Shown: positions 5,158-29,729 of the stretch, in pieces | How positions within the stretch are numbered: the stretch's first letter is position 1 | Layout of the letters: every line of letters starts with the position of its first letter | Assembly: GCA_032622095.1 (NCBI GenBank) | Contig: CP136066.1 | Location: 42,547,835-42,611,834 of the forward strand | Direction: 5' to 3' | Source: Siphonodentalium dalli | Taxonomy: Eukaryota; Mollusca; Scaphopoda; Gadilida; Siphonodentaliidae | DNA: 64,000 bases | Notes under the pieces: model-generated | Seen by the model: the letters and a program-made list of their open reading frames with translations, nothing else | What the model was told of the DNA's origin: nothing | Database searches by the model: none | Position numbers and translations under genes: made by a program

Positions 5158-5358
5158 CTGATCTTTACATAGCTTTCCCGTTGCAAAGTAATGCGATTTC
5201 GGATGAGCCAAGTACATCCCTGAAACGGACGAGGCTGGGTCCATCGCTAGCGACTCCGTTAACGTAATGCCCACTTTATCAGCCTCCAGCAGTTTCCACA
5301 TGGTTAGTTTCTCTGTATGATCGGGCTGTGTGGGGTATCCAGCAGCTGGACGGATTCC
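5158..5358 (-). CDS. MTR: MTR exon w26: AdoMet-binding loop GIRPAAGYP
   Basis: Window residues 962-1028. [17 protein letters not shown] is the signature AdoMet-contact loop (R.A.GYP). [18 protein letters not shown] and [12 protein letters not shown] follow. The acceptor is CTTACAG and the donor CAG|GTGAGA. Related proteins add about 28 residues (V.DYA.RK, WLGP) in a further exon not seen here. Confidence 0.97.
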
Positions 5359-5571
5359 CTGTAAGTTTTTATACATTTATTGCATTGTTATGATGTAAAC
5401 TTAATAAACGGTAGATTCAAAATATTTATGTGTTTTGACTGAAAGAAAACTTCAATTTGTAAATCCAAACATATTGTTTTTTGGCTCAATCAGACCCTGT
5501 GTTCATATTGACTCCGTTGTTTATTATTAACAACTCTTCCATGACTGGAGCTTCCTGAAATTTTGTGAAAA

Positions 5572-5996
5572 CCCGGTGTCAATTTATTCTCTTATATATG
5601 TTAGTCTTCCATAGGCAGCCTCACATATATAAGAGAATACATTGGTCTAACAATATTTACCTTGTCCTCGTTAGCCAGTGCATTCTCTTATATATGGGAA
5701 TCTCCCAAAGGGAGCCTTGCATATATAAGAGTATACATTGGCCTAACAATATTTACCTTGTCCTTGTAAGCCAGTGCATTCTCTTATATATGCGAGTCTC
5801 CCATAGGAAGCCTTGTATATATAAGAGAATACCCTGTGCCAATGCATTCTCTTATAATATATAGGGAGCCTCGCATATATAAGAGAATACATTGGCCTAA
5901 CAATATTTACCTTGACATTGTAAGTGAGTGCATTCTCTTATATATTCGAGGCTCCCTATGGAAGACTCACATATATAAGAGAATGAACTGGCACAA
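5572..5996. repeat. Cluster of five hairpin modules
   Basis: Five tandem, diverged copies of the CATTCTCTTATATATG...CATATATAAGAGAATG hairpin near 5578, 5672, 5773, 5840 and 5926, separated by ATTGGCCTAACAATATTTACCTTG. Intron text upstream and C-rich sequence downstream (5996-6430) carry nothing else recognisable. Confidence 0.8.
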
Positions 5997-6430
5997 GATG
6001 ATATAAAAGTTCCTTTTCTGCTGATATTCACGATTTTAGTACCTTCTGAGGTGACATATTCTTACCTATCTTCCCACCCCACCCCCTTGTTGTATGGCAG
6101 GAGGGGCAGGTGCGATCTCTGCCCCTTAATCTAGGGGTGTATTAATTGCTGATGTTGATAATCAATCCGTTACATTAATAAACAATTAGTGTATCACTGA
6201 ATACATTACAAGATTATAGTTTAGCAAGGGAAGCCTAACTGTCTTAGTAAAGAGTAGGTCGGTATAACTTGTCGTACGTTGCTTGTTAAGTATGATAACT
6301 TTTTGTATTAAAATATAGGGTAACTGATTTCACTTGGGTTAAGCTCTTCATGTGAATTGTCATGATCAGCAATGAGATATGTTTTCTGAATAAGTGGGAC
6401 GAGTACTCTTTCGTTTATATAGAGGACATT

Positions 6431-6684
6431 CAAGCCTTGAAATAGTGTGTCTGTCATTTGCAGAATGAGGTCCCCAGAGGGTGAATTTAGTGATGCTACC
6501 CCACATAGCGGGCTAGCATCACCAAATTCAACCTCTGAGGACCTCATTCTGCTTACATCTCAGCAGAATGAGGTTCCCAGAGGGTGAATTTGGTTATGCT
6601 AGCCCAATATGCAGGGTAGCATCACTAAATACACCCTCTGGGAACCTCATTCTGCAAATGACAGACACACTATTTCAAGGCTTG
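6431..6684. mobile_element. hAT-type MITE B with 8-bp target duplication
   Basis: Ends CAAGCCTTGAAATAG and CTATTTCAAGGCTTG, flanked by a perfect AGGACATT duplication at 6423-6430 and 6685-6692. Inside are two head-to-tail palindromes of GAATGAGGTCCCCAGAGG. The 8-bp duplication points to the hAT superfamily. Confidence 0.85.
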
Positions 6685-6771
6685 AGGACATTATATCCAG
6701 AGGGCACGAACAGGTCAGACACCTTATGGTGAATAAAATTAATCAGTGAAAACATTAGTTTGGTTTTACTT

Positions 6772-7232
6772 CTGTGCAAGCCTGAGTTTAGTGTATCTGT
6801 CATTTGCAGAATGAGGTCCCCAGAGGGTGAATTTAGTGATGCTATCCCGCATAGCAGGCTAGCATCACTAAATTCACCCTCTGGGGACCTCATTCTGCTT
6901 AGGCCCTCAACTGCTATGGTAGATATAGGATCAGATTGAAGTTCCCCAGTTGAACTTGGTGATGTTCACCCATTGGGCACCTCGATTATGGACTTTACCT
7001 TCTGCAAATTAGGGGATATACCGGTAGAAACTTCCCAGATGGGAAAACGTAACTAAAAACAATGTTAATTTGATACTATAGATACCTCCAAGAAGATGAG
7101 GCCTAAGCAGAATAAGGTCTCCAGAGGGTGAATTTGGTGATGCTAGCCCGCTATGCGGGATAGGATCACTAAATTTACCCTCTGGAGACCTCATTCTGCA
7201 AATAACAGACACACTATTTGCAGGCTTGCTTC
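6772..7232. mobile_element. MITE B, long form
   Basis: Palindromic GAATGAGGTCCCCAGAGGGT modules at 6806-6900 and 7110-7200 flank a ~200-bp internal segment. It is also found at 4430-4630 and 18890-19080, which defines a longer family member. Confidence 0.7.
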
Positions 7233-7419
7233 TGTGAACAACGACACCCTTTTCAGTTACTTGTTGGCGAAACAAAAATAACTATACTCGTTCTTCTTTA
7301 ATCTTTGGAAAAGAATATCAACTGCACAGGAATAGACGTTTAATTAATGAAACTAAAAACACCTGTGACTAAACAAGTCTTGACATTTTGACCACCAGCA
7401 TGAGTAGCCTATGGATTAC

Positions 7420-7521
7420 CTGGTATTTAACTTTGAGGAGGTCGGTCGTGTCTAATCCCTCGTCTTTGGAGAATCCCCAGAGATCAGATCTAACTCTCGC
7501 ATGGAGTTCCTCAGCAAAAGC
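7420..7521 (-). CDS. MTR: MTR exon w25: AFAEELHARVRSDLWGF
   Basis: Window residues 928-961. AFAEELHARVRSDLWGF then LLKVKYQ is the conserved helix before the AdoMet loop. The acceptor is TTTTTCAG and the donor CCAG|GTAATC. Both ends are phase 0. A mariner-type MITE lies 36 bp upstream of the acceptor. Confidence 0.96.
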
Positions 7522-7556
7522 CTGAAAAATACCCACACTGATATATATCTAAGGTA

Positions 7557-7771
7557 CAGTAATGCCCTAAATAATCGACTCCTTTAATGGCAGCAGAATT
7601 ATGGGTAACTTTTCAGGATTTAGTCGGAAATATGGCTTGTTGCCATTCACCGGAAAGCTCTCAGTGAGAGCTTTCCGATGAATGGCAACAAGCCATATTT
7701 CCGACTAAATCCTGAAAAGTTACCCATAATTCTGCTGCCATTAAAGGAGTCGATTATTTAGGGCATTACTG
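7557..7771. mobile_element. Mariner-type MITE C, full palindrome
   Basis: Ends CAGTAATGCCCTAAATAATC and its complement, flanked by TA on both sides. The whole element is a near-perfect palindrome centred near 7664. The TA target suggests Tc1/mariner. It lies 36 bp upstream of the w25 acceptor. Confidence 0.88.
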
Positions 7772-7774
7772 TAG

Positions 7775-8280
7775 TAATACACAATTTCCAGCAATTTTGT
7801 CCAACCTGAGAGAGGATACTGTACTTCAATCTATGCTGAGCCATTATTGCATACACAAAACACTTAATTTTACCTATTTTGTTTTTTACTCAAATTGATC
7901 ATTTTCAACACAAAAACCATGACAGAGTGAATGTAAGCAAATAAGCTTCTTCCAATTAATAGAACTATGTTAGGGCTGAGAACAATTTGAAATAATTTTT
8001 TTTTTTAAATAAAAATATTTTGCAAGTGCAGATGACAGAATTCAGGGGAGAGAAATCGGGCTATTTTCCTGTAACCAAACACAGAGTTGGCCTCCACTGA
8101 TTAGGAAAATCATGTAACGTATCCAACTGTTTCCCTTTTTTTGTGAACTTTCCCAGTTTTGTAAAATAGTTAAACAGTCAAACCAGTAATGTCACCCCCC
8201 CCCCCCAGATACTTATTAGTCTATATTTCTGACCCCCTATAATCGATAAGTCGTGTACTGCAACCTTAAGTCCCCATCAG
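7775..8280. other. Intron sequence, no feature
   Basis: AT-rich with a C-tract at 8195-8207. Nothing supported. Confidence 0.4.
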
Positions 8281-8283
8281 GCA

Positions 8284-8890
8284 CGGGAATATGGTACCAG
8301 ACATTTGCATAATGAGGTCCCCAGAGGGTGAATTTATTGACGCTACCCTGCACAGTGGGCAAGCATCGCCAAAAATTCATCCTCCGGGAACCTCATGCTG
8401 CATGGCCTCATCTGCTATGCGAGACCCAGACACATATTTAAGTTCCCAAATGGTGAATATTGTGATGTGAACACATTGGGCACCTTGATTATGCAATGTG
8501 TCGTCTGACAATTTGAGGATATAGAGAAACTATTAAAAAAAAAAAAAAAAAAAAAAAAAATTCTTTCTGAAAAAACTTGTTAAATTGATAATAAAGATAC
8601 CTTAGAAAAGATGAGGCCTAATAAAAAAGAGATCCCCAGAGGGTGAATTTACTGATGCTTGCCTGCTGCGTGGAGGAGCTTCACTAAATTTATCCTCTGG
8701 GGACCTCATTCTGCTGCGTGGAGGAGCTTCACTAAATTTATCCTCTGGGGACCTCATTCTGCTGCGTGGAGGAGCTTCACTAAATTTATCCTCTGGGGAC
8801 CTCATTCTGCTGCGTGGAGGAGCTTCACTAAATTTATCCTCTGGGGACCTCATTCTGCAAATGTCCGCCATCATATTCTCAGGCTTGCAT
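8284..8890. mobile_element. MITE B with fourfold 48-bp internal expansion
   Basis: MITE B modules at 8310-8405 and 8625-8860. Within the second, a 48-bp unit (GCGTGGAGGAGCTTCACTAA...) is repeated four times, making a short ORF repeat in both strands. A long A-tract lies at 8534-8560. Confidence 0.75.
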
Positions 8891-8980
8891 AAGCCCATCA
8901 TGCTCTATTTATAGAGTTCAAGAAGAAAGGCACATAACTCTGGTGAGAATGGATGAAATCCATCATATGGGGGATATCTT

Positions 8981-9182
8981 TTAACCCTTTACCCAACAAA
9001 CCGGCCAAAAACGCCCAAACAAAGCTTCAACAGCCTAAAATATCTTCGGTCTGTCTCAATAACACCATACAAATATGGATATCATTGGAACCGGTTCATT
9101 GACCACATTGTGATGGTTACAGTTATGCCCTGTGCCAATGCATTCTCTTATATATGCGAGTCGACAATAGGTCGCCTCATAT
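8981..9182. mobile_element. TTAA MITE, CCGGCC shell, 5' half only
   Basis: TTAACCCTTTACCCAACAAA then CGGTCTGTCTCAATAACACC, running into the hairpin module, which is cut at about 9180. Complete relatives are at 30534, 54701 and 62473. Confidence 0.75.
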
Positions 9183-9841
9183 TGGACTATCACTCTACCA
9201 AACCAGAGGTGGGACAGACAGTATAAGGTAATTCATACATACTGCTATATACACCCCCATAACTAGGGGTCGGGGGCATAATAACTTGGTTCTTATATTT
9301 TATAAGAAGTCATATGCGCGTTTTATTATCAATATCCAAATAAGTTTTAAATTGTGATAAGGTAATGGTAAAATTATACATGTATTTATCCACCTCTCAC
9401 TGGCTCTAATGCCTACATAAACATAAACATAACGTAGCTTTATTTGGACATCATACCTTTATTATGTGAGTGCTACTTTCATGATGTAATTGCATAGTGA
9501 ATCAGGGATGTCAACCTGTCAAAATGATGACATTGTGATTTCGAAAAGTTTTTATCGTCTAAAATCCACCACAATTGATAAAAAAATTCATAAACAGATA
9601 TGTGTTTTCGCTCTATAACATCTATAAACCATTAGAACAACGCCAGTCTAGATAACTATAAACTTAACCAACCAACTATTTCACTCTTAGCTGCACTCCA
9701 GTTTTCCCCGTGTCATGAATACTAATCTGTTTGCTTGACCTCATAAATGTAAGGGCGTCATCGAAGTAACGAATTTAAAACTTTGGAAAATTACAGATTT
9801 CTCCCACAAGTTATGTGGTGGATAAATAAAATATGCAGCTA
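9183..9841. other. Intron sequence, no feature
   Basis: AT-rich, no repeat or exon recognised before the array at 9842. Confidence 0.4.
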
Positions 9842-11318
9842 ATGATGATATTAAAGTACTGACCTCGGCTAACCTGTCTGCTAAAGCCTTCACCATGATG
9901 ATATTAAAGTACTGACCTCGGCTAACCTGTCTGCTAAAGCCTTCACCATGATGATATTAAAGTACTGACCTCGGCTAACCTGTCTGCTAAAGCCTTCACC
10001 GTGATGATATTAAAGTACTGACCTCGGCTAACCTGTCTGCTAAAGCCTTCACTATGATGATATTAAAGTACTGACCTCGGCTAACCTGTCTGCTAAAGCC
10101 TTCACCGTGATGATATTAAAGTACTGACCTCGGCTAATCTGTCTCCTAAAGCCTTCACCATGATGATATTAAAGTACTGACCTCGGCTAACCTGTCTGCT
10201 AAAGCCTTCACCATGATGATATTAAAGTACTGACCTCGGCTAACCTGTCTGCTAAAGCCTTCAGTACTGACCTCGGCTAACCTGTCTGCTAAAGCCTTCA
10301 CCATGATGATATTAAAGGACTGACCTCGGCTAACCTGTCTGCTAAAGCCTTCAGTACTGACCTCGGCTAACCTGTCTGCTAAAGCCTTCAGTACTGACCT
10401 CGGCTAACCTGTCTGCTAAAGCCTTCACCATGATGATATTAAAGTACTGACCTCGGCTAACCTGTCTGCTAAAGCCTTCACCACGATGATATTAAAGTAC
10501 TGACCTCGGCTAACCTGTCTGCTAAAGCCTTCACCATGATGATATTAAAGTACTGACCTCGGCTAACCTGTCTGCTAAAGCCTTCACTATGATGATATTA
10601 AAGTACTGACCTCGGCTAACCTGTCTGCTAAAGCCTTCACCGTGATGATATTAAAGTACTGACCTCGGCTAACCTGTCTGCTAAAGCCTTCACCATGATG
10701 ATATTAAAGTACTGACCTCGGCTAACCTGTCTGCTAAAGCCTTCACCATGATGATATTAAAGTACTGACCTCGGCTAACCTGTCTGCTAAAGCCTTCAGT
10801 ACTGACCTCGGCTAACCTGTCTGCTAAAGCCTTCACCATGATGATATTAAAGGACTGACATCGGTTAACCTGTCTGCTAAAGCCTTCAGTACTGACCTCG
10901 GCTAACCTGTCTGCTAAAGCCTTCAGTACTGACCTCGGCTAACCTGTCTGCTAAAGCCTTCACCATGATGATATTAAAGTACTGACCTCGGCTAACCTGT
11001 CTGCTAAAGCCTTCACCACGATGATATTAAAGTACTGACCTCGGCTAACCTGTCTGCTAAAGCCTTCACCATGATGATATTAAAGTACTGACCTCGGCTA
11101 ACCTGTCTGCTAAAGCCTTCAGTACTGACCTCGGCTAACCTGTCTGCTAAAGCCTTCACCATGATGATATTAAAGTACTGACCTCGGCTAACCTGTCTGC
11201 TAAAGCCTTCAGTACTGACCTCGGCTAACCTGTCTGCTAAAGCCTTCACCATAATGATATTAAAGTACTGACCTCGGCTAACCTGTCTGCTAAAGCCTTC
11301 ACCATGATGATATTAAAG
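9842..11318 (-). repeat. Splice-donor array of exon w24 (53- and 37-bp units)
   Basis: About 30 tandem copies counting the real exon end. The standard 53-bp unit contains ATGGTGAAGGCTTTAGCAGA...GCCGAG (MVKALADRLAE) followed by the donor GTCAGTAC and intron bases. A 37-bp form lacks the CACCATGATGATATTAA part. A higher-order period of about 535 bp shows from a shared AAAGGACTGAC variant at 10311 and 10846. Nearly every unit keeps the donor. Confidence 0.95.
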
Positions 11319-11339
11319 TCATCCAGCTTCTCTTCATAC
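11273..11339 (-). CDS. MTR: MTR exon w24: MVKALADRLAE, seed of a donor array
   Basis: Window residues 905-927, YEEKLDDFNIIMVKALADRLAE. The acceptor is TTATTCAG and the donor CGAG|GTCAGT. The last ~35 coding bases plus donor are repeated about 29 more times across the following 1.4 kb of intron. I chose the copy adjoining the unique 5' part, because only it has the acceptor. Confidence 0.95.
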
Positions 11340-11381
11340 CTGAATAAAATATTTAGGAAATTGCTTGAATATACATCAACA

Positions 11382-11878
11382 AGCCTTGAAATAGGGTGTC
11401 TGTCATTTGCAGAATGAGGTCCCCAGAGGGTGAATTTAGTGATGCTACCATCACCAAATTCACCCTCTGGGGACCTCATTCTGCTTACACATCAGCAGAA
11501 TGAGGTTCCCAGAGGGTGAATTTAGTGATGCTACTCCATTCAGCGGGCTAGCATCAACAAAATCAACCTCTGGTAACCTCATTCTGCATAAGCCTCATCT
11601 TCTGGGAAGTATCTATAGTCTTAAATTAACATTGTTTTAGTTACTTTTTCCCTTCTCTTCCAGTTTCTGTATCCCCTAATTTGCAGAAGATAAAATTAAT
11701 AACCTCAACTGGGGAACTTCAATCTGATCCTAGGTCTCCCATAGCAGTTCAGGCCTAAACAGAATGAGGTTCCCAGAAGGTGAATTTGGTGATGATACCC
11801 CACCACGTGGGATAGCACCACTAAATTCACCCTCTGGGGACCTCATTCTGCAAATGTCAGACACACTATTTCCAGGCT
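11382..11878. mobile_element. MITE B, composite copy
   Basis: It starts AAGCCTTGAAATAGGGTGTC and ends ACACACTATTTCCAGGC. It contains several GAATGAGGT palindromes and the longer internal segment at about 11600-11760, and sits just upstream of exon w24. Confidence 0.75.
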
Positions 11879-11886
11879 GTATAAAC

Positions 11887-11975
11887 ATATTTAAACTTCA
11901 AATAATCGACTAAATCCTGAAAAATTACCCATATTTCTGCTGTGGTTAAGGAGTCGATTGTTTAGAGCATTACTG
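11887..11975. mobile_element. Mariner-type MITE C, decayed half
   Basis: TAATCGACTAAATCCTGAAA then CTGCTGTGGTTAAGGAGTCG and GAGCATTACTG followed by TA. Only the right part and a short left part remain. Its end is about 15 nt inside the intron from the w23 donor. Confidence 0.75.
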
Positions 11976-11991
11976 TATGTGAGTGACTTAC

Positions 11992-12125
11992 ATTTTGCAT
12001 AATTTCTGCGCTCCATGAATTGAAACAGCAAAGAGACCTATATGATCCTTGAGTCCTGATTCCTGTGGTGCGATGTAGTCAGATAGACAGAGGTATGGTT
12101 CATTGGAATGTACGTCTTTTTCAGC
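11992..12125 (-). CDS. MTR: MTR exon w23: AdoMet domain, CLSDYIAP
   Basis: Window residues 861-905. PYLCLSDYIAP then DHIGLFAVSIHGAQKLCK. The acceptor is TTGGCAG and the donor AAAT|GTAAGT, phase 2. The end of a mariner-type MITE lies about 15 nt into the intron after this donor. Confidence 0.96.
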
Positions 12126-12215
12126 CTGCCAAAACAAAAGGTGAAAAAGGGTCTATAATTGGTTAAACAATTTGTGGGGAAAGATGATATAAGATGATGT
12201 ATTGATGTAAACTTA

Positions 12216-15200
12216 TAGTCTGGTCGATAAAAGGTTTGACCTAGAAAAAAACTTGGACTAAAATCCGCATTTTCTGTAATTCAAGATGGCGTCCAAGATG
12301 GCTGCCATTTTCCTATAAGTCAGCTTGATGCAATTAGAGTGAGAACATTTTGTCATATGTATACGCATGTATACATTTTTGTGAAGTTAAGACATAACGC
12401 TACCTTTAACCACCAAAATTGGAACTCCCCGTCCAAGATGACCACCAAAATGGCGACCGGAAGTGGAATTTTTACGTTTTTTACTAACATCTTTAAGATA
12501 AGTTTCTGTGGTTTGGAAATGGTTGAGAATTGTGACTTTATTTTGTATTTATCATGTTAACTGACCATTGGAGCAATGAAATAAGCTGTTCATGGGGTCC
12601 GCACCCCTTCCGATCACTCAATTATTCGATTTTACAAAACACGATATAACATTTCACAAAAGATCCCCATTGGGATTCTAGTCATATTTCACCAAGAAGT
12701 GGGAAGAACTGTGCAATGTAAGTGATGCATTCTATATCTTATTTATATTCAAACTCAATGGTACCAAAATTGTCACTTTGGCTCAAAGTGGCTGCCAAAA
12801 TGGCCACCAAAATATGGAAAATGGTAATTATTATCCCAGTGCCATGCAACTGCTTACAAGTTGTGGTGATGCATACAATTGACTATTCTGTCTTATATAG
12901 CTTGACTACTAACATTTCTGATACATCTTGGGTATTTGTTACTATTTTAACCACTGAAGTTACCAGAATTATTCGAAATTTTCTGTCACAAACCTGATAT
13001 CAAAATCAAAATATCGCTGTTCAGGTTTGAGCCATTTTTAAAATGTAAAATGGAACTATGTTTGGTATCAAAGATGTTTATTGTTCTGATATGTGTGACA
13101 TGTGTCACACTGAGGTGTTTTAGAACAAATTACTCAAGATGGCATCCAAAATGGGAACCAAATTTGGTAAATATTATTATATACATATGTGTATATACGT
13201 GGTGTATATGTAAACATAATCAATTGCGACTCATGTGTTACTTAATCAACTAAATGTCCCGGTACCCTATGAGGCATGACAAGTTCATTTTGAGGAATGC
13301 AATATGGATTTTGCCAAAAACTTCCTTGTTTTTGAACGGAAATGGGCAGAACATTCAAACAGAACTGAGAGGGATCATATTATGTGGCCATTAGCATCAA
13401 CATTGATCAACTTAATACAGTGTGTATGTCTGATGACTGTATGGTCATAGGCGAGGTGAGTAGGTACACATGGAGTTATTGTATTCATGAATGATGTGAA
13501 AAGTTATACAATGTGTGATGTGACCATATGGTCATGGATGCGGTGTCCATGGTGAGATGTATAGGTATATAATGAGTAGCTGTATGGTCATGTGTGAGGT
13601 GAACATGTTTACAGTGATTGGCTGTCTGGGCATAACGAGAGCAGCTACACTGTCCTGTATGTATATATATGGAGTGACTGTGTGGTCAGGGGTGGGCTGT
13701 ATAGGTGTACATTGGGTGGCTGTATTGTCATGGGTGGGTGTATATGTATACATATGTTGGATGTATGATAATGGATGGGTGTATGGATAAATAGGGTGTG
13801 GTTGTATGGTTATGCGCAATGTGTATATGTGTACATGGAATGACTGCACGGTCATTGTTGAAGTGTATATGCATACCTGGAGTACACTTTGATGGCCATT
13901 GGCAGCTAGTCTATATAGAGAGTGACCTCATGGTGGTGTGTGGAATATATATGTTTATATGTAGGGCCTATTGTATTGTCATTGGTGGTGTGTACAAGTA
14001 TACAGTGAATAGCTGAATGCTCATGGAGAGGGTGTATACGTATACAGCCAGTGGCTGAATTGTCACGGTTGAGCTGTATATGCAATTCTGTACGAATGAC
14101 CATGTGTGCGGGTATTGGTATATCTAGAAGGGCTGTATGGCCATTGATGAGGTATATATATACACCTGGAGTGATGCTGTGGTCATGGGCGAGGTGTATA
14201 TGTATATCATGAGTGACTATATGGCCATGGCACGGCCAATATGTATATAGGGATTGACAGTATGGCAAAATTAATGGTGGGGGTGAATTGATATACACAG
14301 AGTGACTATGATCACGAATGTGGTTTATGCGTATACAGCAACAGGCTGAATTGTCATGGGTCAGGTGTATATGCAAGTCTGGAGTGTATGAATGGCCGTG
14401 TGTGCGGTACGGGACATTGATATATCTAGAAGGGCTTTAAGGCCATTGAGAGGTATGTGTATATACCTGGAGTGACTCTATGGTTTTGGGTTGGGTGTAT
14501 ATGTATATCTTTAGTGGCTATATGGCCACGGGTGTCACAAATATGTATATATACAGGGAGTGAGACTGTATGGCCACTGGTGAGGCAAATAGATATACAA
14601 GAAGTGATGTATTATCATGGATGTAGCGAACAGGTATAACAGGAGTGACTGTATGGTCATCGGTGGGGTGTATATGTATATCTTTAGTGGCTATATAACT
14701 ATGCATGTGGCAAATAAATATACATGGAGTGAATGTATGGCCTATGGTGAGGCGAATAGGTATACAAGAGGTTACTTTATGTTCATGTATGTAGTGGATA
14801 TGTATACAGGTCGTGTGAGGTGTAGGAGTATACCAGGTGTGACTCTGCATGGTTATTCACGGCTATAGGGCCATGCGTTGGTGTATGGGTAAACCCAAGT
14901 GTGGCTGTATGGTAATGGGTGAGGTGTATGTCTATACACTGAGTGGCACATGGTCATTTATGTGGTGTTCATGTATATATGGAGTGACTGCATGCTCATG
15001 TGTGATTTGTACTGGTACACCTTTGGGTGACTATCGCTTTCCACAATAACTCAAGGATATGTTAATCGATAGAGGTAATATCAGAGTGTTCTCCACATTA
15101 ATTGCGTTTTATATGCAATGTGAAGAAAACGGTTTTCCTGACAATAGTTTATAAGAACCAATTTTGATGCTAATGGGCCAGAGTAGCCACATAATATGAT

Positions 15201-15895
15201 CCCTTTCAGTTCAGTTTCAACGTTCTGTCCATTTCCGTTAAAAAACATGGACAGAATCCCAAAAGAGGTGTTCCGCTAAATCCATACTGCATCCCTTAAA
15301 ATGAATTTGTCATGCCTCATAAGGTGCTGGGACAACCAGAATATAAGATTTAGTTGTCAGTTGTCAGTTGATTAAGTAGCATGTTTAATAACCAAGTGAG
15401 TCACAATTTGCTACCATTTCGGAACAGCAGAGAATAGTGTTCGGAATATAAACTTTTTACCAAATTTGGTTCAGAATTCTCAACCAGTTCCAAACCACAG
15501 AAATTTATCTTAAAGATGTGAGTAAAAAACGTAAAAATTCCACTTCCGGTCACCATTTTGGTGGCTGGTCACCATTTTGGTGGCCGGTCACCATTTTGGT
15601 GGCCATCTTGGACTGGGAGTTCCAATTTTGGCACATAAAGGTGGCGTTATATCTTAGCTTCACAAAAATGTATACATATGACAAGATGTTCTCACTATAA
15701 TTGCATCAAGCTGATATATAGGAAAATGGCAGCCATCTTGGACGCCATCTTGAATTACAGAAAATGCTCAAAGCGGATTTTAGCGGATTTTGGATATGTT
15801 ATAGAGGAGAGCTTCCTCTTCAAAATGGTATAAAAACAACTTAGTCCAAATTTTTTATAGGTTGACCCTAAAATTTGAGTTTATCGACCAGACTA
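12216..15895. mobile_element. Foldback element with ~0.7-1.2 kb inverted arms
   Basis: It begins TAGTCTGGTCGATAAA and ends TTTATCGACCAGACTA. The right arm (about 15150-15895) is complementary to most of the left arm (12216-13410). The left arm has about 550 extra bases (12560-13120). Both arms share CCAAGATGGC...CATCTTGGAC stretches. The core is a satellite. ORFs here have no recognisable product. Confidence 0.8.
13420..15045 (+). repeat. ~42-bp minisatellite core of the foldback element
   Basis: About 38 diverged units of the form TGTATATGTATACATGGAGT GACTGTATGGTCATGGGTGA GG. The TATAC/GTATA palindrome recurs in nearly every unit. It generates many short ORFs on both strands (tyrosine/isoleucine-rich) that are not genes. 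Confidence 0.85.
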
Positions 15896-16023
15896 TTAGG
15901 TAATAAAAGATTCAATATATTTATGTTTTTTTTACTGTAAGAAAACTTTGTGAATTCAAAAATTTTGCTGAAATCTTATCTCAATCAAAACCTGTGACCG
16001 TATTGACTCTGTTGTTTATTATT

Positions 16024-16440
16024 AATGGTACTCAATCTGATTCGATGGTCCCCATATAATCAGATTCCAACAACAACATTTTTAGAAAAACCGCTTCAGT
16101 TATCAGAATCGATTAATTGCTAAAAAATGATGCTAACCAATGTCATCTATAGTATAAAATTGCCGAAACATCAACATGTTGTTCGACAAAATTATGCCTT
16201 ATTATCAACACAAAGCCTCTTGATTTTAGAGTTATCCATCTTCATCCCCATTTTGGTCCCGAGACCATCAGCTCATCAACTAATAAGTCTGGATGGTGAA
16301 AAATAATAGATTTCAAAAATCGATATCTAATAACTCTGAGCTTTGATATGTGGGTTCCTTGACTCGAATCAAATATTTTTAACCCCCGAATCCAAATAAA
16401 TAGTAATTGAAGGGCGCTTAATTGGATTATGCATCTTTAA
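16024..16440 (+). repeat. Interspersed element F, copy 3
   Basis: Same orientation as 1073-1495, from GGTACTCAATCTGATTCG to TTAATTGGATTATGCATC. Confidence 0.7.
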
Positions 16441-16776
16441 TGCTTAAAAACTTAAATAATTTATGTCGAACTATCATATTGCACTATTGCTCAGCGCAGA
16501 CAATCAAGTACTGCAGGGTGGACAAAGGAGTACACCAGTTCAAAGAGGCGAGAACAACGATAGAGTATTTATCGCTAACAATGAGTAAAAATGAGTTCAA
16601 AGCTTTATACGATCAGAATGGATTATCTTCACACAAATAGTAATTTTGGGGCTCATGTTTGTCCAACATCAAAAGAAAGCAAGCCGTATATAGCATGTCT
16701 CTGATTTCAAAACAAATATCTTGTTTCTATTATTACTGGAAACTGGCTAATTAGAATTAAAACAAAATTAGATTCT

Positions 16777-16899
16777 TTAACCCTTTCAGTGCCAAGTCTG
16801 ACTTTTGAATGTATCACATTATTATAATCAATAAATTTGAAAAATGATCAAGGAAATATGGGTTGATACAAAAGTCGGACTTGGCACTCAAAGGGTTAA
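16777..16899. mobile_element. TTAA MITE, deleted palindrome
   Basis: TTAACCCTTTCAGTGCCAAG to CTTGGCACTCAAAGGGTTAA, lacking most of the left arm found at 2167 and 48637. It ends 29 bp from the w22 donor. Confidence 0.8.
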
Positions 16900-16928
16900 A
16901 TCCTTTGACACTCGTCCTTTGAACTGAC

Positions 16929-17110
16929 CTGCTGCCGAATTCCATGTAATATCGCTTTATTCTGGCCATTCTCATCAAAGACTATGATGTCATCACCGCT
17001 ACTGTTTGCTGCATAGAACGCCACACATCCTCGTGCTGTGAGGCTGCCATTGGTTATCACAGTCTGTAGCATCTTCTGGGCGTCATTGTAGAGTTTCTTA
17101 GCCTCGGCAC
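16929..17110 (-). CDS. MTR: MTR exon w22: AdoMet domain middle
   Basis: Window residues 800-860, AEAKKLYNDAQKML, then LTARGCVAFYAANSSGDDI and LHGIRQQ. It follows the usual pattern ARGV.GFWPA.S..DDI, then a variable loop, then F.GLRQQ. The acceptor is CTCCAG and the donor CAG|GTCAGT. A TTAA element starts 29 bp beyond the donor. Confidence 0.96.
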
Positions 17111-17158
17111 CTGGAGCACAGATGACAAAGCAGTCAGAAGATCTACCACACAGAGCCA

Positions 17159-17515
17159 AGCCTTGGAATAGTGGCTGTCATTTGCAGAATGAGATCCCCA
17201 AATGGTTAATTTAGTTACGCTATCCCGCAAAGCAGGCAAGCATCACCAAGTTCACCCTCTGGGAACCTCATTCTGCTGTAGCCTCAACTGTTATGGGAGA
17301 CCTAGGATAAAAACTGAACAGAATGGAAAAAGTAACTAAAAACAATGTTAATTTGAGATTATAGATAGTTCCCAGAAGATGAGGCCTATTCACAATGAGG
17401 TTCCCAGAGGGTGAATTTGGTAATTCTAGACTGCTGTGTGGGATAGCATCACTTAATTTACCCTCTGGGGACCTCATTCTGCAAATGATAGACACACTAT
17501 TTTCAGCCTTGCTAC
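17159..17515. mobile_element. MITE B pair flanking internal segment
   Basis: Palindromic B modules at 17185-17275 and 17390-17490 with the longer-form internal part between them. It starts 48 bp upstream of exon w22. Confidence 0.7.
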
Positions 17516-17693
17516 TGTTTAACCTGTTCAATACTGAACGGATTCTCCCATTCAGTTATAAAAGTATACATTGGAACGGTCTATTATTCATTTGGAGAAG
17601 TGTCCAATGGGCAGAGAGCAGATGGCAGCATGACGAAAAGATTATACAAGTGCAGAAGTATTCATATTTTTAGCGCGAAATGTTCAGATAATA

Positions 17694-18052
17694 AGCTCCG
17701 TGGTCCAGTGGTCAGCATGTCAGAATTGTCTTCGATACCAACACATTGAGATGAGATCGCAACAGTGGCTTAGTGGGATTTAACAACATGTGACTGTACG
17801 TGGTTAAAATCTCTCACCAAGTTGTGACCCTTGGGCAAGGTCACTTCTACTGTGCTTGCTTTGTCATACCTCGATGAGAAATGGGGACCTGGTTTGTTGG
17901 TTAAGTGTAGGGCGCTCTAGTGAAGCCCTTATAAAATGGCAGCAGGCATAAGACTCGGCATTACTCAACAGCTGGGGTAATAATGTGAAGCACATAGGGC
18001 CCCGTATGTTAGAGAGATTCGCATTATATAAACACCATTATTATTATTTTAG
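17694..18052 (+). mobile_element. tRNA-derived SINE, type 2
   Basis: A tRNA-like head (GCTCCGTGGTCCAGTGGTCA), a central CCTTGGGCAAGGTCACTT region and a tail TATATAAACACCATTATTAT. This architecture is widespread in marine animal SINEs. No flanking duplication identified. Confidence 0.65.
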
Positions 18053-18164
18053 TCACAGGATGTGACATACTGTGAATGTTTTGATTTCATCAGCATCAAT
18101 TTTCGTGGTTTCTTACAAAAAGGCTTTTTCATGGGGACATGAATTCGTGGATCAGATATCATAT

Positions 18165-18428
18165 TTGTGACCCGCCATATCAAATCCAGTCGGAAGTCGG
18201 GATTTTTTTACCCTGTGCCAATGCATTCTCTTATATATGCGAGTCGACCATAGGTCGCCTCGCTTATATAAGAGAATGCATTGGCCTAACAAATTTTTAC
18301 AATTTTAATAATTTTTTCTTGTATTCTTTAACAATTTTATAATTTTACCCATACAGAGCCCCAGACAAACATGAGCAGACGACACTCTTCTATGTGCTGC
18401 TATATATGTGTGGGGCTCCCTGCAGGGT
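18165..18428. mobile_element. Hairpin-bearing MITE, GACCCGCC shell, copy 1
   Basis: GTGACCCGCCATATCAAATC, then TCGGGATTTTTTTACCCTGT, the hairpin module (18213-18285), then AGAGCCCCAGACAAACATGA and a GGGGCTCCCTGCAGGGT end. It is nearly identical to 23964-24226. 18430-18770 holds nothing else recognised. Confidence 0.75.
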
Positions 18429-18773
18429 TGATATCTGTGCCAAATTAAAAAAAATTTACCAGAAAATGATGAATACAGGCTCGGACCAAGTTCCGGATGG
18501 ACGGCTAGAAGATGGACTCTACGACAGACGCATGCAGACTAGGGTCATTACTATAGTCCTCCAAAGGATTAATTGATTGGAAAGTGGATTAAGCAATAAG
18601 CCCAAGGGCTTCTATTGAGTTTGCTGTTCTTTTAATTTGATAATGGCATTTTATATAACATTTCATCTCGTCTTCCGTGTTTTCTCCCACCCGTTTTCGA
18701 TCTTTTATATTGATATTTACTCTACCAAATCAGTCAATTCTTTCGTATATTAATTTGTGGTCAACAAATAGAA

Positions 18774-19152
18774 GCCTGCAAACAGTGTGTCTGTCATTTG
18801 CAGAATGAGGTCCCCAGGTGCTCCATCCCACACAGTGGGCTAGCGTAACCAAATTTACCCTCTGGGAACCTCATTCTGCTAAGGCATCAACTGCCATGGG
18901 AGACCTCGGATCAGATTGAAGTTCCCCAATTGAAGTTGGTGATGTTCACCAATTTGCCACATCTATTATGCATTTTATCTTCTGCAAATATGGGGATATA
19001 GAAACTTCCCAGAAAGGAAAAAGTAACTAAAACAATGTTATTTTGAGACTATCGATACTTCCTAGAAGATGAAACCTAAGCAAAATGAGGTCCACCAGAA
19101 GGTGAATTTGGTGATGCTAACCCACTGGGGACCTCATTCTGCAAATGACAGA
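18774..19152. mobile_element. MITE B, long form, partly deleted
   Basis: GCAGAATGAGGTCCCCAG modules with the internal TTGAAGTTGGTGATGTTCAC segment. It lies 99 bp downstream of the w21 donor. Confidence 0.65.
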
Positions 19153-19250
19153 CCAAAAACAAAAATGGCCAGACAAAATTTGAAGCCAGCGTGAACCCTA
19201 TTAGAGCAGTATGCAGTCACTCAATCAGAAGACAAGAACGAGATACTCAC

Positions 19251-19406
19251 CCACTTGCTTATCATTGAATATTTTCGGGAATCCTCTGTTTGGATATTTC
19301 CCGCGGAGCTGCCAGACGTCGAAGAAAGGTTTCCAGTCTATATAAGGCACGAGTTTTGCTAACTGGTAATTATCAAACCGAGTTATACCCAGCTGTGGTG
19401 GAGCAC
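19251..19406 (-). CDS. MTR: MTR exon w21: AdoMet domain, [18 protein letters not shown]
   Basis: Window residues 748-800. [19 protein letters not shown] and GFPKIFNDK are conserved in the activation domain, which rebinds AdoMet to re-methylate oxidised cobalamin. The acceptor is TATTTCAG and the donor GTGG|GTGAGT. Phase 1 at both ends. Confidence 0.97.
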
Positions 19407-19483
19407 CTGAAATATATAGATATGAGTGTCAAAGCTTCCAACACTTATCATTACTAAATGGATTCTTCACTGAAGATAAACAA

Positions 19484-19742
19484 TTAACCCTTTCATGATG
19501 GGAGCCGCGCTTGTGTAGTATTAAAGATCCTGTGCCAGTGCATTCTCTTATATATGCAATTCTCCCACAGGAACCTCGCATATATAAGAGAATGCACTGG
19601 CTTACAAGGTAAATATTGTTAGGCCAATGTATTCTCTTATATATGCGAGGCCCCCAATGGAAGACTCGCATATATAAGAGAATGATGCATTGGCACAGGG
19701 TTTTTGCAAAATGTCAGGATGCTCCATGCATGAAAGGGTTAA
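19484..19742. mobile_element. TTAA MITE, GATGGGAG shell, two hairpins
   Basis: TTAACCCTTTCATGATGG to CATGAAAGGGTTAA, with hairpins at 19533-19608 and 19620-19696. Upstream of exon w21. Confidence 0.8.
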
Positions 19743-19762
19743 ATGTGTCATATTTGTCTTTG

Positions 19763-19934
19763 TTAACCCTTTCAGTACCAAGTCCGATTTTTGTATCAAC
19801 CCATATACCCTGTGCCAATGCATTCTCTTATATATGCGAGTCGACCTAATGCATTGGCCTAACAATTTTTCATCATTTGTTATTATTTTTTACAATTTTA
19901 ATAATTGTTTCTTATATTCTTTAAAAAGGGTTAA
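19763..19934. mobile_element. TTAA MITE, TGCCA shell, right end degenerate
   Basis: TTAACCCTTTCAGTACCAAG, then a hairpin truncated in its loop (19808-19862), then an AT-rich tail ending AAAGGGTTAA. The stretch 19965-20940 is AT-rich intron with nothing recognised. Confidence 0.65.
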
Positions 19935-20954
19935 CAACAGATTTCCAGAAATTAATATATAAATCAGTATAAATCCTGAAGAAATGATGAATGTTGCGAT
20001 GAGATCATCAAAGCAAGTATTTGTGTTCTCAGGCAATTACCGGTAGAACTCAATTTTAAGATGAGGGAGGGAGAGTATTTATTTCTTACTTTTTTTCTCA
20101 AAATCTGGAAAGCATACTCCAGAATTTTTGTTTTATTTTCGTTGCTTAAGACCAATATAACATATTGAAAAAAATGTTTGACAAGCTTTTAAAAGAAAAT
20201 TTTGGTGATGAGGGATGTGCCTGAGAACACAGGAGAACACGGAATTTTTATTTATTCGGCATAAATAACATAATAATACTGTCCTGTAATGGTCAAACGA
20301 TTGCCATCAAATGTAAAATTTGAACGATTTGCAAACATTTTTGGCAAATAAAAATTATGACAACATCAGACAGAGTTTTTGTGATAATTCCCACTGGATT
20401 CTTTTGATTCAGTTATAAACATATAGATTGGAATAGTATATTGTTCATTTGAAAACGAGTTATAAAATTACAAGAGCAGAAAACGTATAAATATTTTCTC
20501 ACCAGTGTTAACCTAACTAACTACATCTAACTAGAACTTTCTCAAAGGTACAAAAAGACAGTCCCATCATTTAAATTTTAGAGAAAACCTGTGCTAAATG
20601 ATCGGTGTGATGGTTTCATAACAAATAATAAACATGTGCTAATATTCATTAGGTACTACATAAATTTTAAAAAGAAACTTGTTTTAAATTGTTATCTGTG
20701 AAGAATATTGGAAGATGCCATTGGTTTTGAAACAAAGTAGTACATTTATGTCACTTTAAATGGCACGGTTCTCCGATAAAAAATTTTGCACAAGTTGGCG
20801 GGATTGCAGGTAATTCAAGAGTACTGGTTGATCCCAGCTAATCAGAATTCTTATTGAACCCAATTTGAAGGGTGGCTGTAATTATTTCAATGTTAAAAGG
20901 CCCAAAAACAATGAGTTAGCATGTTACAACGTAGCAGTTTCATGTTACAACGTA

Positions 20955-21120
20955 CAGTAATGCCCAAAGTAATTGACCCCTTAACCACAACAGAATTATG
21001 GGTAATTTTTCAGGGGAGAGCTTTCCGATGAATGGCAACAAGCCATATTTCCGACTAAATCCCGAAAAGTTACCCATAATTCCGCTGTGGTTATGGAGTC
21101 GATTATTTAGGGCATTACTG
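20955..21120. mobile_element. Mariner-type MITE C next to a splice donor
   Basis: CAGTAATGCCCAAAGTAATT to GGGCATTACTG, flanked by TA. Its right end lies at intron position +6/+7 of the GC donor of exon w20. Confidence 0.88.
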
Positions 21121-21127
21121 TACATGC

Positions 21128-21203
21128 CTGGTGGTGTCTCTGTATTCCAGTCGATGAGTATCTTCTTCTCTCTGGCTTTGTCCAGTGACAAATATTTCCT
21201 ATC
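21128..21203 (-). CDS. MTR: MTR exon w20: AdoMet domain, with GC donor
   Basis: Window residues 723-748, DRKYLSLDKAREKKILIDW. The acceptor is TTGTAG. The required phase 1 end falls at CCAG|GCATGT, a non-canonical GC donor. The nearest GT would give phase 2 and break the frame with exon w21. A TA-flanked MITE begins 6 nt into the intron. Confidence 0.9.
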
Positions 21204-21441
21204 CTACAACATAATATAATTAAAGAGATACAGTTAGCTCGATAACTGAATTTAAAAAAATCAAGATAACAATGATGATGACTAAACTAGAGTAGACAAT
21301 GAGTGTGATGTTAATATAAACTTGTCAAATTTTCGTGGTCATTTTTAATAAATTTTAACTTCTTGCATGATTTTGAATCAAAATCTTGAACTTTTGAGCC
21401 CCCCCCCCATGTTTAGCAGGATAAAATGACAATGCACCAAC

Positions 21442-21540
21442 CTTCAGTGAATCATAGTGTTCCTCACGGATCTCCTCATATTCGTCACTTATATCCTCGA
21501 TGAATTCATCCTTCACGTTAGCGTCTCTCAAGGCAGAACA
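21442..21540 (-). CDS. MTR: MTR exon w19: linker to AdoMet domain, [15 protein letters not shown]
   Basis: Window residues 690-722. [19 protein letters not shown] then [14 protein letters not shown] is the linker into the reactivation domain. The acceptor CTTTCAG|TGTTCTGCC is the nearest of about 36 tandem copies. The authentic exon differs from the array copies (RDA instead of TDG). The donor is AAG|GTTGGT. Confidence 0.96.
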
Positions 21541-23815
21541 CTGAAAGATATTAAAAACCATGATGAAATACCATCAATCAAGGCAGAACACTGAAAGAAA
21601 TGAAAAACCACGATGAATTAATCCTTCACATTACCGTCAGTCAAGACAGAACACTGAAACATATTAAAAACCACGATGAATTAATCCTTCACATTACCGT
21701 CAGTCAAGGCAGAACACTGAAAGAAATGAAAAACCTCGATGAATTCATCCTTCACATTACCGTCAGTCAAGGCAGAACACTGAAAGAAATGAAAAACCAT
21801 GATGAATTCATCCTTCACATTACCGTCAGTCAAGGCAGAACACTGAAAGATATTAAAAACCACGATGAATTAATCCTTCACATTACCGTCAGTCAAGACA
21901 GAACACTGAAACATATTAAAAACCACGATGAATTAATCCTTCACATTACCGTCAGTCAAGGCAGAACACTGAAAGAAATGAAAAACCTCGATGAATTCAT
22001 CCTTCACATTACCGTCAGTCAAGGCAGAACACTGAAAGAAATGAAAAACCATGATGAATTCATCCTTCACATTACCGTCAGTCAAGGCAGAACACTGAAA
22101 GATATTAAAAACCTCGATGAATTCATCCTTCACATTACCATCAGTCAAGGTAGAACACTGAAAGATATTAAAACCATGATGAATTCATCCTTCACATTAC
22201 CGTCAGTCAAGGCAGAACACTGAAAGAAATGAAAAACCATGATGAATTCATCCTTCACATTACCGTCAGTCAAGGCAGAACACTGAAAGAAATGAAAAAC
22301 CATGATGAATTCATCCTTCACATTACCATCAGTCAAGGTAGAACACTGAAAGATATTAAAAACCACGATGAATTCATCCTTCACATTACCATCAGTCAAG
22401 GCAGAACACTGAAAGAAATGAAAAACCTCGATGAATTCATCCTTCACATTACCATCAGTCAAGGTAGAACACTGAAAGAAATGAAAAACCTCGATGAATT
22501 CATCCTTCACATTACCGTCAGTCAAGGCAGAACACTGAAAGAAATGAAAAACCTCGATGAATTCATCCTTCACATTACCGTCAGTCAAGGCAGAACACTG
22601 AAAGAAATGAAAAACCTCGATGAATTCATCCTTCACATTACCGTCAGTCAAGGCAGAACACTGAAAGAAATGAAAAACCTCGATGAATTCATCCTTCACA
22701 TTACCGTCAGTCAAGGCAGAACACTGAAAGAAATGAAAAACCATGATGAATTCATCCTTCACATTACCATCAGTCAAGGTAGAACACTGAAAGATATTAA
22801 AAACCTCGATGAATTCATCCTTCACATTACCATCAGTCAAGGTAGAACACTGAAAGATATTAAAACCATGATGAATTCATCCTTCACATTCCCGTCAGTC
22901 AAGGCAGAACACTGAAAGAAATGAAAAACCATGATGAATTCATCCTTCACATTACCATCAGTCAAGGTAGAACACTGAAAGATATTAAAAACCATGATGA
23001 ATTCATCCTTCACATTACCATCAGTCAAGGTAGAACACTGAAAGAAATGAAAAACCATGATGAATTCATCCTTCACATTACCATCAGTCAAGGTAGAACA
23101 CTGAAAGATATTAAAACCATGATGAATTCATCCTTCACATTACCATCAGTCAAGGTAGAACACTGAAAGATATTAAAACCATGATGAATTCATCCTTCAC
23201 ATTACCGTCAGTCAAGGCAGAACACTGAAAGATATTAAAACCATGATGAATTCATCCTTCACATTACCGTCAGTCAAGGCAGAACACTGAAAGATATTAA
23301 AAACCTCGATGAATTCATCCTTCACATTACCGTCAGTCAAGGCAGAACACTGAAAGAAATGTAAAACCATGATGAATTCATCCTTCACATTACCATCAGT
23401 CAAGGTAGAACACTGAAAGAAATGTAAAACCACGATGAATTCATCCTTCACATTACCATCAGTCAAGGTAGAACACTGAAAGAAATGAAAAACCATGATG
23501 AATTCATCCTTCACATTACCATCAGTCAAGGTAGAACACTGAAAGAAATTAAAAACCATGATGAATTCATCATTCACATTACCATCAGTCAAGGTAGAAC
23601 ACTGAAAGAAATGAAAAACCATGATGAATTCATCCTTCACATTACCATCAGTCAAGGTAGAATACTGAAAGATATTAAAAACCTCGATGAATTCATCCTT
23701 CACGTTACCGTCAGTCAAGGTAGAACACTGAAAGATATTAAAAACCTCAATGAATTCATCCTTCACGTTACCGTCAGTCGAGGCAGAACACTGAAAGAAA
23801 TGAAAAACCACATGT
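21541..23815 (-). repeat. Splice-acceptor array of exon w19 (63-bp units)
   Basis: About 36 tandem units upstream of exon w19. Each reads TTTCTTTCAG or TAATATCTTTCAG, then TGTTCTGCCTTGACTGACGG TAATGTGAAGGATGAATTCATC, i.e. the acceptor plus the first coding bases (CSALTDGNVKDEFI). The unit nearest the exon is only 50 bp. Units of 62 and 63 bp alternate, breaking any long frame. Long ORFs on both strands are by-products of the period. Confidence 0.95.
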
Positions 23816-23963
23816 TCTCAACTTAAAATTTGAAAACATGAGTATTATATCGCAGGAAATAGAATTTAAACTCTTCGCTGCTGAATAACATTACGTTGTG
23901 TGCTGAGCCATTGGCGTTATGGCATAATGCAGTTTGAAACGGAGATGATGTGAAAATGCTATA

Positions 23964-24226
23964 TGTGACCCGCCATATCAAATCCAGTTGTAAGTCGGGA
24001 TTTTTTTACCCTGTGCCAATGCATTCTCTTATATATGCGAGTCGACCATAGGTCGCCTCGCATATATAAGAGAATGCATTGGCCTAACAATTTTTAACAA
24101 TTTTAATAATTTTTTCTTGTATTCTTTAACAATTTTATAATTTCACCCATACAGAGCCCCAGACAAACATGAGCAGACACCACTCTTCTATATGCTTCTA
24201 TATATGTGTGGGGCTCCCTGCAGGGT
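23964..24226. mobile_element. Hairpin-bearing MITE, GACCCGCC shell, copy 2
   Basis: Near-identical to 18165-18428, with the hairpin at 24014-24087. A further half hairpin lies at 24298-24340. The rest of 24230-25060 is AT-rich intron without recognised features. Confidence 0.75.
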
Positions 24227-25077
24227 AATGGATGTTTTTTATTTTATGTCCTAAAAATTGTAAAAAACATTTATTTAAAAAAAATGATAAAAAATTGTTA
24301 GGCCAATGCATTCTCTTATATATGCGAGGCGACCTATGGTCAATATAAAAAATATTGCTAGATTTACATCCCCCTCCCGACACTTTTATTTTTTTTATTT
24401 GACCAATTTTGATGCAAAAATTATTATCATGCTTTAACCAGCCTCAACCATCAAAATATGTTTTGAAAACCAATAAATCAGTCTATTTTGATCAAATTGG
24501 ACAAAATAAATCACTGAGTATTATATAAGATAGGACACATATTCAATATTTACCATGACCATTTAAGAATAAAATATAAAAAATAAAATTTCCCCTCCCT
24601 CCAGCTGCGCATGCTCCCTCTGGAAAAAAAATCTTTATATTGGCCTTGTACAGTGAAATGGATATTTTAAGAACATATTATAACTCATTCTAGACAGGTA
24701 TTATTATCTGGGACTATCCACAATATAACAGCACACTAAATATTGGCTGTACACAATATAACAGTCTGCGCTTGTGTTGAAGTATGACATCACATCTTAC
24801 CTCCATCCTCTGTATGGATAAAAAACAGTGTTAACGGGTTAAGATCAGTCACAAAAATATTAAGTCGAAACATTTAGAAGAAAAAGAAAATGAAATATTT
24901 AATATATTTCCCCTGTTGATTTGAAGGGAAAATCTATAAAGTTTAACTGAAATTCAATAGTTAAACAGCAATGTTCTTATAAATATTAAAGAATTCTGTA
25001 AGATATCAATATACAGGACAATAAATAACCATTCAGATACATAATAAAAGTGTATCGAGAAAACGTATGCAACTCAC

Positions 25078-25159
25078 CACTACAACACTCTTTGAAGCAT
25101 CAATAACGTGGACAACTGGACACTTGTATCTAGGAGCAATCTTGACAGCTGTGTGTGTC
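25078..25159 (-). CDS. MTR: MTR exon w18: end of cobalamin domain, [11 protein letters not shown]
   Basis: Window residues 662-689. [11 protein letters not shown] and [13 protein letters not shown] close the cobalamin domain. The acceptor is GTTTTAG and the donor GTG|GTGAGT. Phase 2 in, phase 0 out. Confidence 0.97.
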
Positions 25160-26280: not shown

Positions 26281-26286
26281 GCTTAC

Positions 26287-26407
26287 TTTGAAGTTGTAGC
26301 GCCACCTATCAGTAATGGCAACTTCATGCCGATTCTCTGCATTTCTTTTGCAACATATATCATCTCATCTAACGATGGAGTGATTAATCCTGACAAGCCA
26401 ACAAAGT
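26287..26407 (-). CDS. MTR: MTR exon w17: cobalamin domain, [11 protein letters not shown] and GGATTS
   Basis: Window residues 622-662. [13 protein letters not shown] and LLIGGATTS are the second and third cobalamin-contact motifs of the Rossmann-like domain. The acceptor is TATTTCAG and the donor CAAA|GTAAGC, phase 2 out. Confidence 0.97.
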
Positions 26408-26699
26408 CTGAAATAATAGTGTGTAGACATTATGAAGATCACATTTAAATAAAAAATAACAACAAATAACTGTGATTTTAGCCACTGATATATATCCTGA
26501 TAAGAATATCTACATTTACTAAATTTTAAACTGATTGTAAAACAAACTGACTGATGTTATGAGGAAACTAAAATAACTAAATGTCGAAGACCCCAAGTCC
26601 CCCCGAAACAAAGTGACTTTTGGGATGTTGGGTTTTTTTAAGAACAAAGAAGTCAAATTCTATGTAGAGATTCTTTTGAAGATTGCTCAAGTTATCATT

Positions 26700-27150: not shown

Positions 27151-27240
27151 GGTTGAGTTTGGTATACAACTCGACCAAAAACAGAAGCTACATAAAATTT
27201 AAATTGTTTAATCATCACATGTAAACACAAGTTTCCTCAC

Positions 27241-29712: not shown

Positions 29713-29729
29713 ACCCCCCCCCCCAGCAA

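What the first reader, a model, noticed from the sequence alone, without database searches (positions are those of the whole stretch)
9842..11339. Tandem array of a coding exon's 3' end and its splice donor
About 30 copies of the junction of exon w24 (MVKALADRLAE then CGAG|GTCAGT) sit in the downstream intron as 53- and 37-bp units. Only the copy at the edge has the acceptor and the unique exon start. The spliceosome therefore sees one acceptor followed by dozens of equivalent donors. Using a later donor would insert multiples of 53 or 37 nt, usually shifting frame in the AdoMet domain. The gene otherwise looks intact, so something must favour the first donor or tolerate the rest.
Basis: partly seen in the sequence, partly recalled or inferred. 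Interest (0 to 1): 0.9.

Follow-up and report, generated by a model that had tools for sequence, protein, structure and literature searches.

The report
Splice-site minisatellites in a bivalve gene
The end of one exon, with its splice site, is copied 29 more times inside the following intron of a methionine synthase gene that is probably from a clam or mussel relative, and four other exons of the same gene carry similar arrays, so the cell must pick the true splice site among many look-alikes.

Summary
The array is real. On the minus strand a 67-nt exon (11339-11273) of a cobalamin-dependent methionine synthase gene (MTR) is followed by 29 more copies of its 3' end and donor: 21 units of 53 bp and 8 of 37 bp. 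29 of 30 donors share the 9-mer GAG|GTCAGT.

It is not alone. The same partial gene model (26 exons, 1028 aa, no stop) has four more exon-boundary arrays: upstream acceptor copies at E9 (27), E12 (14) and E19 (36), and two extra donors at E14. Each of the 109 alternative sites translated puts a stop in the message.

Such repeats are known in amphioxus as 'mirages'. The window groups with bivalves. One amphioxus MTR protein model repeats the starts of exons E8 and E9.

Best explanation: ordinary minisatellite growth from a duplication across an exon edge, tolerated because exon definition pairs the sites closest across the exon, with NMD removing errors. Published minigenes with two identical donors support this for donors; acceptors are less settled. 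Four of nine large arrays sit on exon boundaries against 0.23 expected (post hoc). No RNA or reads were available.

The parts
5158..63692 (-). Partial MTR (cobalamin-dependent methionine synthase) gene, 26 exons E1-E26 in my numbering, 1028 aa without a stop; both protein ends are outside the model
   Evidence: tblastn of E. coli MetH, hand-placed splice sites, stop-free translation, five Pfam families
11273..11339 (-).
9842..11272 (-). Donor array: 29 further copies of the exon 3' end plus GTCAGT, 21 units of 53 bp and 8 of 37 bp, then a partial unit
45993..46848 (-). Acceptor array upstream of exon E9 (45992-45807): 27 copies of TTTAACAG|GTGCCATTATGT, 25 with AG, units mainly 21 and 37 bp
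38348..38823 (-). Acceptor array upstream of exon E12 (38347-38207): 14 copies at 34-bp spacing, all with AG; TRF follows weaker copies to 38982
21541..23811 (-). Acceptor array upstream of exon E19 (21540-21442): 36 copies, all with AG, spacing 62-63 bp, 50 bp for the last step to the exon
33012..33140 (-). Two extra donor copies downstream of exon E14 (33239-33141), AAG|GTAAAT at 33076 and AAG|GTGATT at 33013

Best explanation
This is an exon-boundary minisatellite, a 'mirage' in the sense used for amphioxus, in the MTR gene of a probable bivalve. A tandem duplication took in the last 47 nt of the exon plus GTCAGT of the intron, and unequal exchange or slippage grew it to 29 extra units (inferred from the 53/37-bp units and the 535-bp block). 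It has no coding role. It is tolerated because the exon lies between long introns, so acceptor and donor are first paired across the exon and the closest pair wins; the exon-proximal copy is therefore used. Stray use of another copy puts a stop in the message, which nonsense-mediated decay (NMD) would clear. Shown here: anatomy, open frame of the model, premature stops. Shown elsewhere: choice of the upstream one of two identical donors under exon definition. Inferred: proximal use and NMD in this gene.
For: Units are exon end plus donor and the frame is open only with the proximal donor (all 29 others stop). E24 is 67 nt between introns of 652 and 3751 nt, above the 200-250 nt transition given in PMC9225289. 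That paper reports exclusive use of the upstream of two identical donors in five exon-definition minigenes. Amphioxus mirages are reported not to interfere with regular splicing (PMC3087553; PMC3902484). Four sister arrays in the same gene with different units fit repeated births.
Against: No RNA was available. The minigenes had two donors (CAG/guaagu), not 30 with GAG/GTCAGT; when both donors were weakened, the larger-exon minigenes skipped the exon. For acceptors the same paper finds only a reduced upstream preference under exon definition, so the rule is weaker for E9, E12 and E19. The intron after E19 is 238 nt, inside the transition range.
Confidence: 0.72

Rival explanations
1. No copy is favoured. 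Donors are chosen loosely, many transcripts carry extra units and a stop, and NMD leaves mainly the correct ones. The array then lowers MTR output, perhaps with its copy number.
For: All 29 later donors and all 80 other alternative sites tested give a stop. 29 of 30 donor 9-mers are identical, so strength cannot decide.
Against: Two identical donors under exon definition are not chosen loosely in minigenes (PMC9225289). Mirage genes of amphioxus are reported without aberrant mRNAs (PMC3902484). Stops are expected in most intron sequence, so they are weak evidence.
Confidence: 0.15
2. Assembly error: the array, or much of its copy number, was created by misassembly of a shorter repeat.
For: Copy number could not be checked against reads; PMC3087553 notes that one amphioxus mirage was wrongly assembled in the draft (supplement legend).
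Against: Copies differ by point changes and two unit lengths, and five boundaries of one gene have arrays with different units. The 99% block duplication at 535 bp fits biology but could also be a local assembly duplication.
Confidence: 0.08
3. The arrays are kept by selection as decoy or regulatory splice sites that tune MTR expression.
For: Large arrays are over-represented at boundaries (4 of 9, post hoc). 104 of 106 splice dinucleotides in four arrays are intact.
Against: The splice dinucleotide is not better kept than other steps of the units: in E24, E19, E12 and E9, 25 of 35, 18 of 60, 18 of 32 and 9 of 19 other steps are kept at least as often. The arrays differ in unit and divergence.
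Confidence: 0.04

Closest known systems
'Mirage' exon-intron boundary minisatellites of amphioxus (Adh3, TnC, globins BflGb6 and BflGb9, PGBD5), as described in PMC3087553 (passages) and PMC3902484 (passage and section)
   Same: Tandem units span an exon-intron boundary, lie in the intron beside the authentic copy, and may carry donors or acceptors. Adh3 units of 10-72 bp cover the sizes seen here.
   Different: Host is a probable bivalve, not a cephalochordate. Here 30 donors and 37 acceptors at single boundaries, against 6 and 3 repeat units for the two BflGb6 haplotypes. Five arrays in one gene model. Splicing and length polymorphism are unobserved here.
Intron gain by tandem genomic duplication of an AGGT-containing exon segment (PMC3443670, passages)
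   Same: A tandem duplication carries a splice signal (GAG|GTCAGT contains AGGT).
   Different: The copies lie within an intron that extends well beyond the array, and the model needs no new exon or intron from them. PMC3087553 proposes mirages as a source of new introns; that step has not happened in this model.
Minigenes with two competing identical donors under exon definition (PMC9225289: abstract, passages, sections 8 and 9)
   Same: One acceptor faces donors of equal sequence, with long flanking introns.
   Different: Two donors in a construct against 30 in a natural gene; human-type cell assay against a probable bivalve.

Membership tests
Mirage minisatellite | Tandem units that span an exon-intron boundary | tested here: met
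   29 further copies of the E24 donor word; for E9, E12, E19, E14
Mirage minisatellite | Authentic boundary at the array edge, the other copies in the intron | tested here: met
   E24 acceptor word has no other match; positions of all copies
Mirage minisatellite | Regular splicing not disturbed | not testable with these tools
   no RNA; the open frame of the model only with authentic sites is indirect
Mirage minisatellite | Length instability between alleles or somatic cells (reported for Adh3 and BflGb6) | not testable with these tools
   one assembly only; the 535-bp internal block duplication is suggestive
Intron gain by tandem duplication | A new intron bounded by the duplicated segment | tested here: not met
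   the intron is 3751 nt and extends past the 1409-nt run of units to E25; the model uses no copy as an exon. Whether the intron position is old was not tested.
Cobalamin-dependent methionine synthase | S-methyl_trans, Pterin_bind, two B12-binding domains and Met_synt_B12 in order, in one open frame | tested here: met
   all five above the curated cut-off; no stop. The N- and C-terminal ends are outside the model.

The most novel reading that the evidence does not exclude
In this genome exon-intron boundaries are preferred sites of minisatellite growth or retention: large arrays (5 or more copies) start at boundaries far more often than random seeding allows, while small duplications do not. 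Something tied to splicing or transcription would then drive expansion, or the shelter given by exon definition would let arrays grow there. The acceptor of exon E9 of the same gene may show it in two phyla, bivalve and amphioxus.
Probability: 0.2. Interest if true: 0.75.

Novelty: new member of a known kind. Interest (0 to 1): 0.55.

Why it matters
A natural gene that offers 30 donors of almost the same sequence after one acceptor, and 37 similar acceptors before another exon, takes splice-site strength out of the comparison. Counting junctions in ordinary long-read cDNA would measure how sharply position alone decides splice-site choice, and whether acceptors follow the same cross-exon rule as donors. 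Donor arrays need the first-transcribed copy and acceptor arrays the last, so one data set separates 'first transcribed wins' from 'closest across the exon wins'. If confirmed, the case extends mirages from amphioxus to a probable mollusc, as far as my ten searches of an open-licence library show, which would make them a broader animal phenomenon and a possible source of new introns. Gene predictors may misread such arrays as coding, as one amphioxus MTR model appears to have done (inference).

Tried and rejected
Unrelated satellite: rejected; the unit is the exon end itself.

Amphioxus as the source: suspected first because of the mirage papers. The MTR tree and the best named matches point to bivalves; the six Branchiostoma rows of the 120 listed are 65-70% identical, the best bivalve rows 72-74%.

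Selection on the copies' splice sites: not supported.

Per-base enrichment: 5 of 52 boundary words have a further copy, but 18.8% of 1500 random 24-mers have one on the same strand within 3 kb, because long arrays fill much of the window. By that measure there is no enrichment. The seed-unit test (4 of 9 large arrays, expected 0.23, P 3e-5) seems fairer to me, but it was devised after seeing the data, rests on a hand-merged list of nine arrays in one window, and the 30 smaller arrays show no excess (1 against 1.5 expected). A second test in the same call, on array edges lying inside exons, counted 3 with 0.99 expected; TRF trims the E19 array short of its exon, so that one did not count.

Other large arrays (42 bp at 14550, 17 bp at 33496 and 35139, 27 bp at 41435, 16/32 bp at 42588) do not match a boundary word of this gene model.

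A search of the window's own genome did not complete, so copies elsewhere and other genes could not be checked.

Literature: ten searches. In the listed rows (some lists were cut to 8-20 of more) I saw no mirage-type report from a mollusc; I did not open most of the listed papers, and only open-licence papers are held. Papers seen: PMC3087553 passages; PMC3902484 a passage and section 17; PMC9225289 abstract, passages, sections 8 and 9; PMC3443670 passages; PMC2206037 passages (amphioxus huntingtin: tandem repeats named, no boundary repeats in those passages). Canestro et al. 2002 (Adh) is not held; I saw its title in a reference list and what others say of it. Reed and Maniatis is known here only as PMC9225289 describes it.

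Full report
What is there. The minus strand of the window carries most of a cobalamin-dependent methionine synthase gene. E. coli MetH (L001) finds its exons by tblastn from 63695 down to 5155. I placed splice sites by hand and joined 26 exons; the phases agree, the 1028-aa product has no stop, and it holds five Pfam families of methionine synthase in order. The solved methionine synthase 9ssp_A (recalled as the human enzyme; the row gives no organism) aligns over all 1028 residues. One donor, E20, is read as GC rather than GT. The first and last parts of the protein are not in the model.

The reported array. Exon E24 (11339-11273, 67 nt) codes for residues 906-927, inside the AdoMet activation domain (PF02965, 762-1028). 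Downstream come 29 more donors, spaced by 21 units of 53 bp and 8 of 37 bp, down to 9863. The 53-bp unit is the last 47 nt of the exon plus GTCAGT; the 37-bp unit lacks 16 nt of it. 29 of 30 donor 9-mers are identical. The first 20 nt of the exon and its acceptor are not repeated. At offset 535 bp the array matches itself at 99.0% over the first 580 bases compared.

What misuse would do. I translated the message for each of the 29 later donors: 20 change the frame and 9 do not, but all 29 stop at the same codon, after 8 further residues.

It is one of five. Of 52 boundary words, five have further copies within 3 mismatches of 24: the acceptors of E9, E12 and E19 and the donors of E14 and E24. 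With looser words, E9 has 27 upstream copies in 856 nt (25 with AG; a 28th match at 48121, 1.3 kb further, is left out of the 27), E12 14 (14 AG), E19 36 (36 AG), and E14 two extra donors. Each alternative site translated gives a stop: 28 of 28, 14 of 14 and 36 of 36 acceptors, 2 of 2 E14 and 29 of 29 E24 donors, 109 in all; two of the 28 E9 sites have no AG. Mean identity of the copies to the authentic site is 99-100% at E24, 95-98% at E12, 86-90% at E19, and 83% (exon side) to 98% (intron side) at E9; the E14 copies are also diverged. The arrays therefore arose, or were last homogenised, at different times (inference).

Taxon. The best named matches are bivalves (Mactra, Mya, Mytilus, Pecten, Potamilus, Mercenaria; 72-74%). 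In a 31-row tree the window falls in a clade of 12 rows whose named members are all bivalves, support 94/94, just below the tool's own mark of 95. I call it a probable bivalve and name no species.

Known relatives. Minisatellites across exon-intron boundaries are called 'mirages' in amphioxus: Adh3, TnC, globins BflGb6 and BflGb9, PGBD5 (PMC3087553 passages; PMC3902484 passage and section 17). Those texts say that they do not seem to disturb regular splicing, and PMC3087553 suggests them as a source of new introns. Of the 120 MTR homologues listed, one shows internal repeats under my scan (9-residue words, 8 identical, offsets 9-399): the Branchiostoma floridae model C3YH00, P0021. It repeats the starts of the residues of exons E8 and E9, the second time behind a stretch that reads like a translated pyrimidine tract; another model of that species, P0030, lacks both. 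I read this as acceptor mirages in amphioxus MTR, one at the boundary that has an array in the window too. This rests on a protein model, not on DNA.

How it is tolerated. PMC9225289 (abstract, passages, sections 8 and 9) reports that under exon definition the sites closest across the exon are favoured, and that with two identical donors the upstream one was used exclusively in five minigenes. When both donors were weakened, larger exons were skipped. E24 is flanked by introns of 652 and 3751 nt, above the 200-250 nt transition given there. That rule alone would select the first donor. For acceptors the paper shows only a reduced upstream preference under exon definition, so E9, E12 and E19 are the harder test. 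Donor arrays need the first-transcribed copy and acceptor arrays the last, so a simple first-come rule cannot explain both (inference).

Are boundaries special? Treating each of nine large arrays as one unit dropped at random, 0.23 should span a boundary; four do (P 3e-5). Thirty smaller arrays give 1 against 1.5 expected. Per base there is no excess: 5 of 52 boundary words against 18.8% of random words. This is a lead, not a result. Splice dinucleotides in the copies are not better kept than neighbouring steps, which speaks against selection for their use.

Limits. No RNA, no reads, no second haplotype, and no answer from the own-genome search.

Noticed in passing
P0021 (Branchiostoma floridae MTR model C3YH00), at the E7|E8 and E8|E9 junctions: In-frame repeats of both exon starts, the second behind what reads as a translated pyrimidine tract; absent from P0030 of the same species.
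   Followed up: partly
window 21569-23811: The E19 acceptor array has open frames of 201-247 codons on both strands, as the 63-bp unit is a multiple of three; an ORF caller would report false genes.
   Followed up: partly
window 7555-7773: Near-perfect palindrome, arms of 109 nt at 99% with 1 nt between, 33 nt from the acceptor of exon E25; looks like a fold-back element.
   Followed up: partly
window, 35 places on both strands, for example 6460-6898, 11409-11851 and 36953-37875: A 40-base word of a palindromic MITE-like repeat matches 35 times with up to 3 mismatches, none expected by chance.
   Followed up: partly
window 33496-34117 and 35139-35308: Two arrays of the same 17-bp unit in the intron before E14, about 1 kb apart.
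   Followed up: no
window 41435-42394: A 27-bp array with higher-order structure (TRF period 284) in the intron between E10 and E11; no boundary word matches it.
   Followed up: no
window 21128-21127: Exon E20 seems to end at a GC donor (CAG|GCATGT), the only non-GT donor of the 26 in the model.
   Followed up: no
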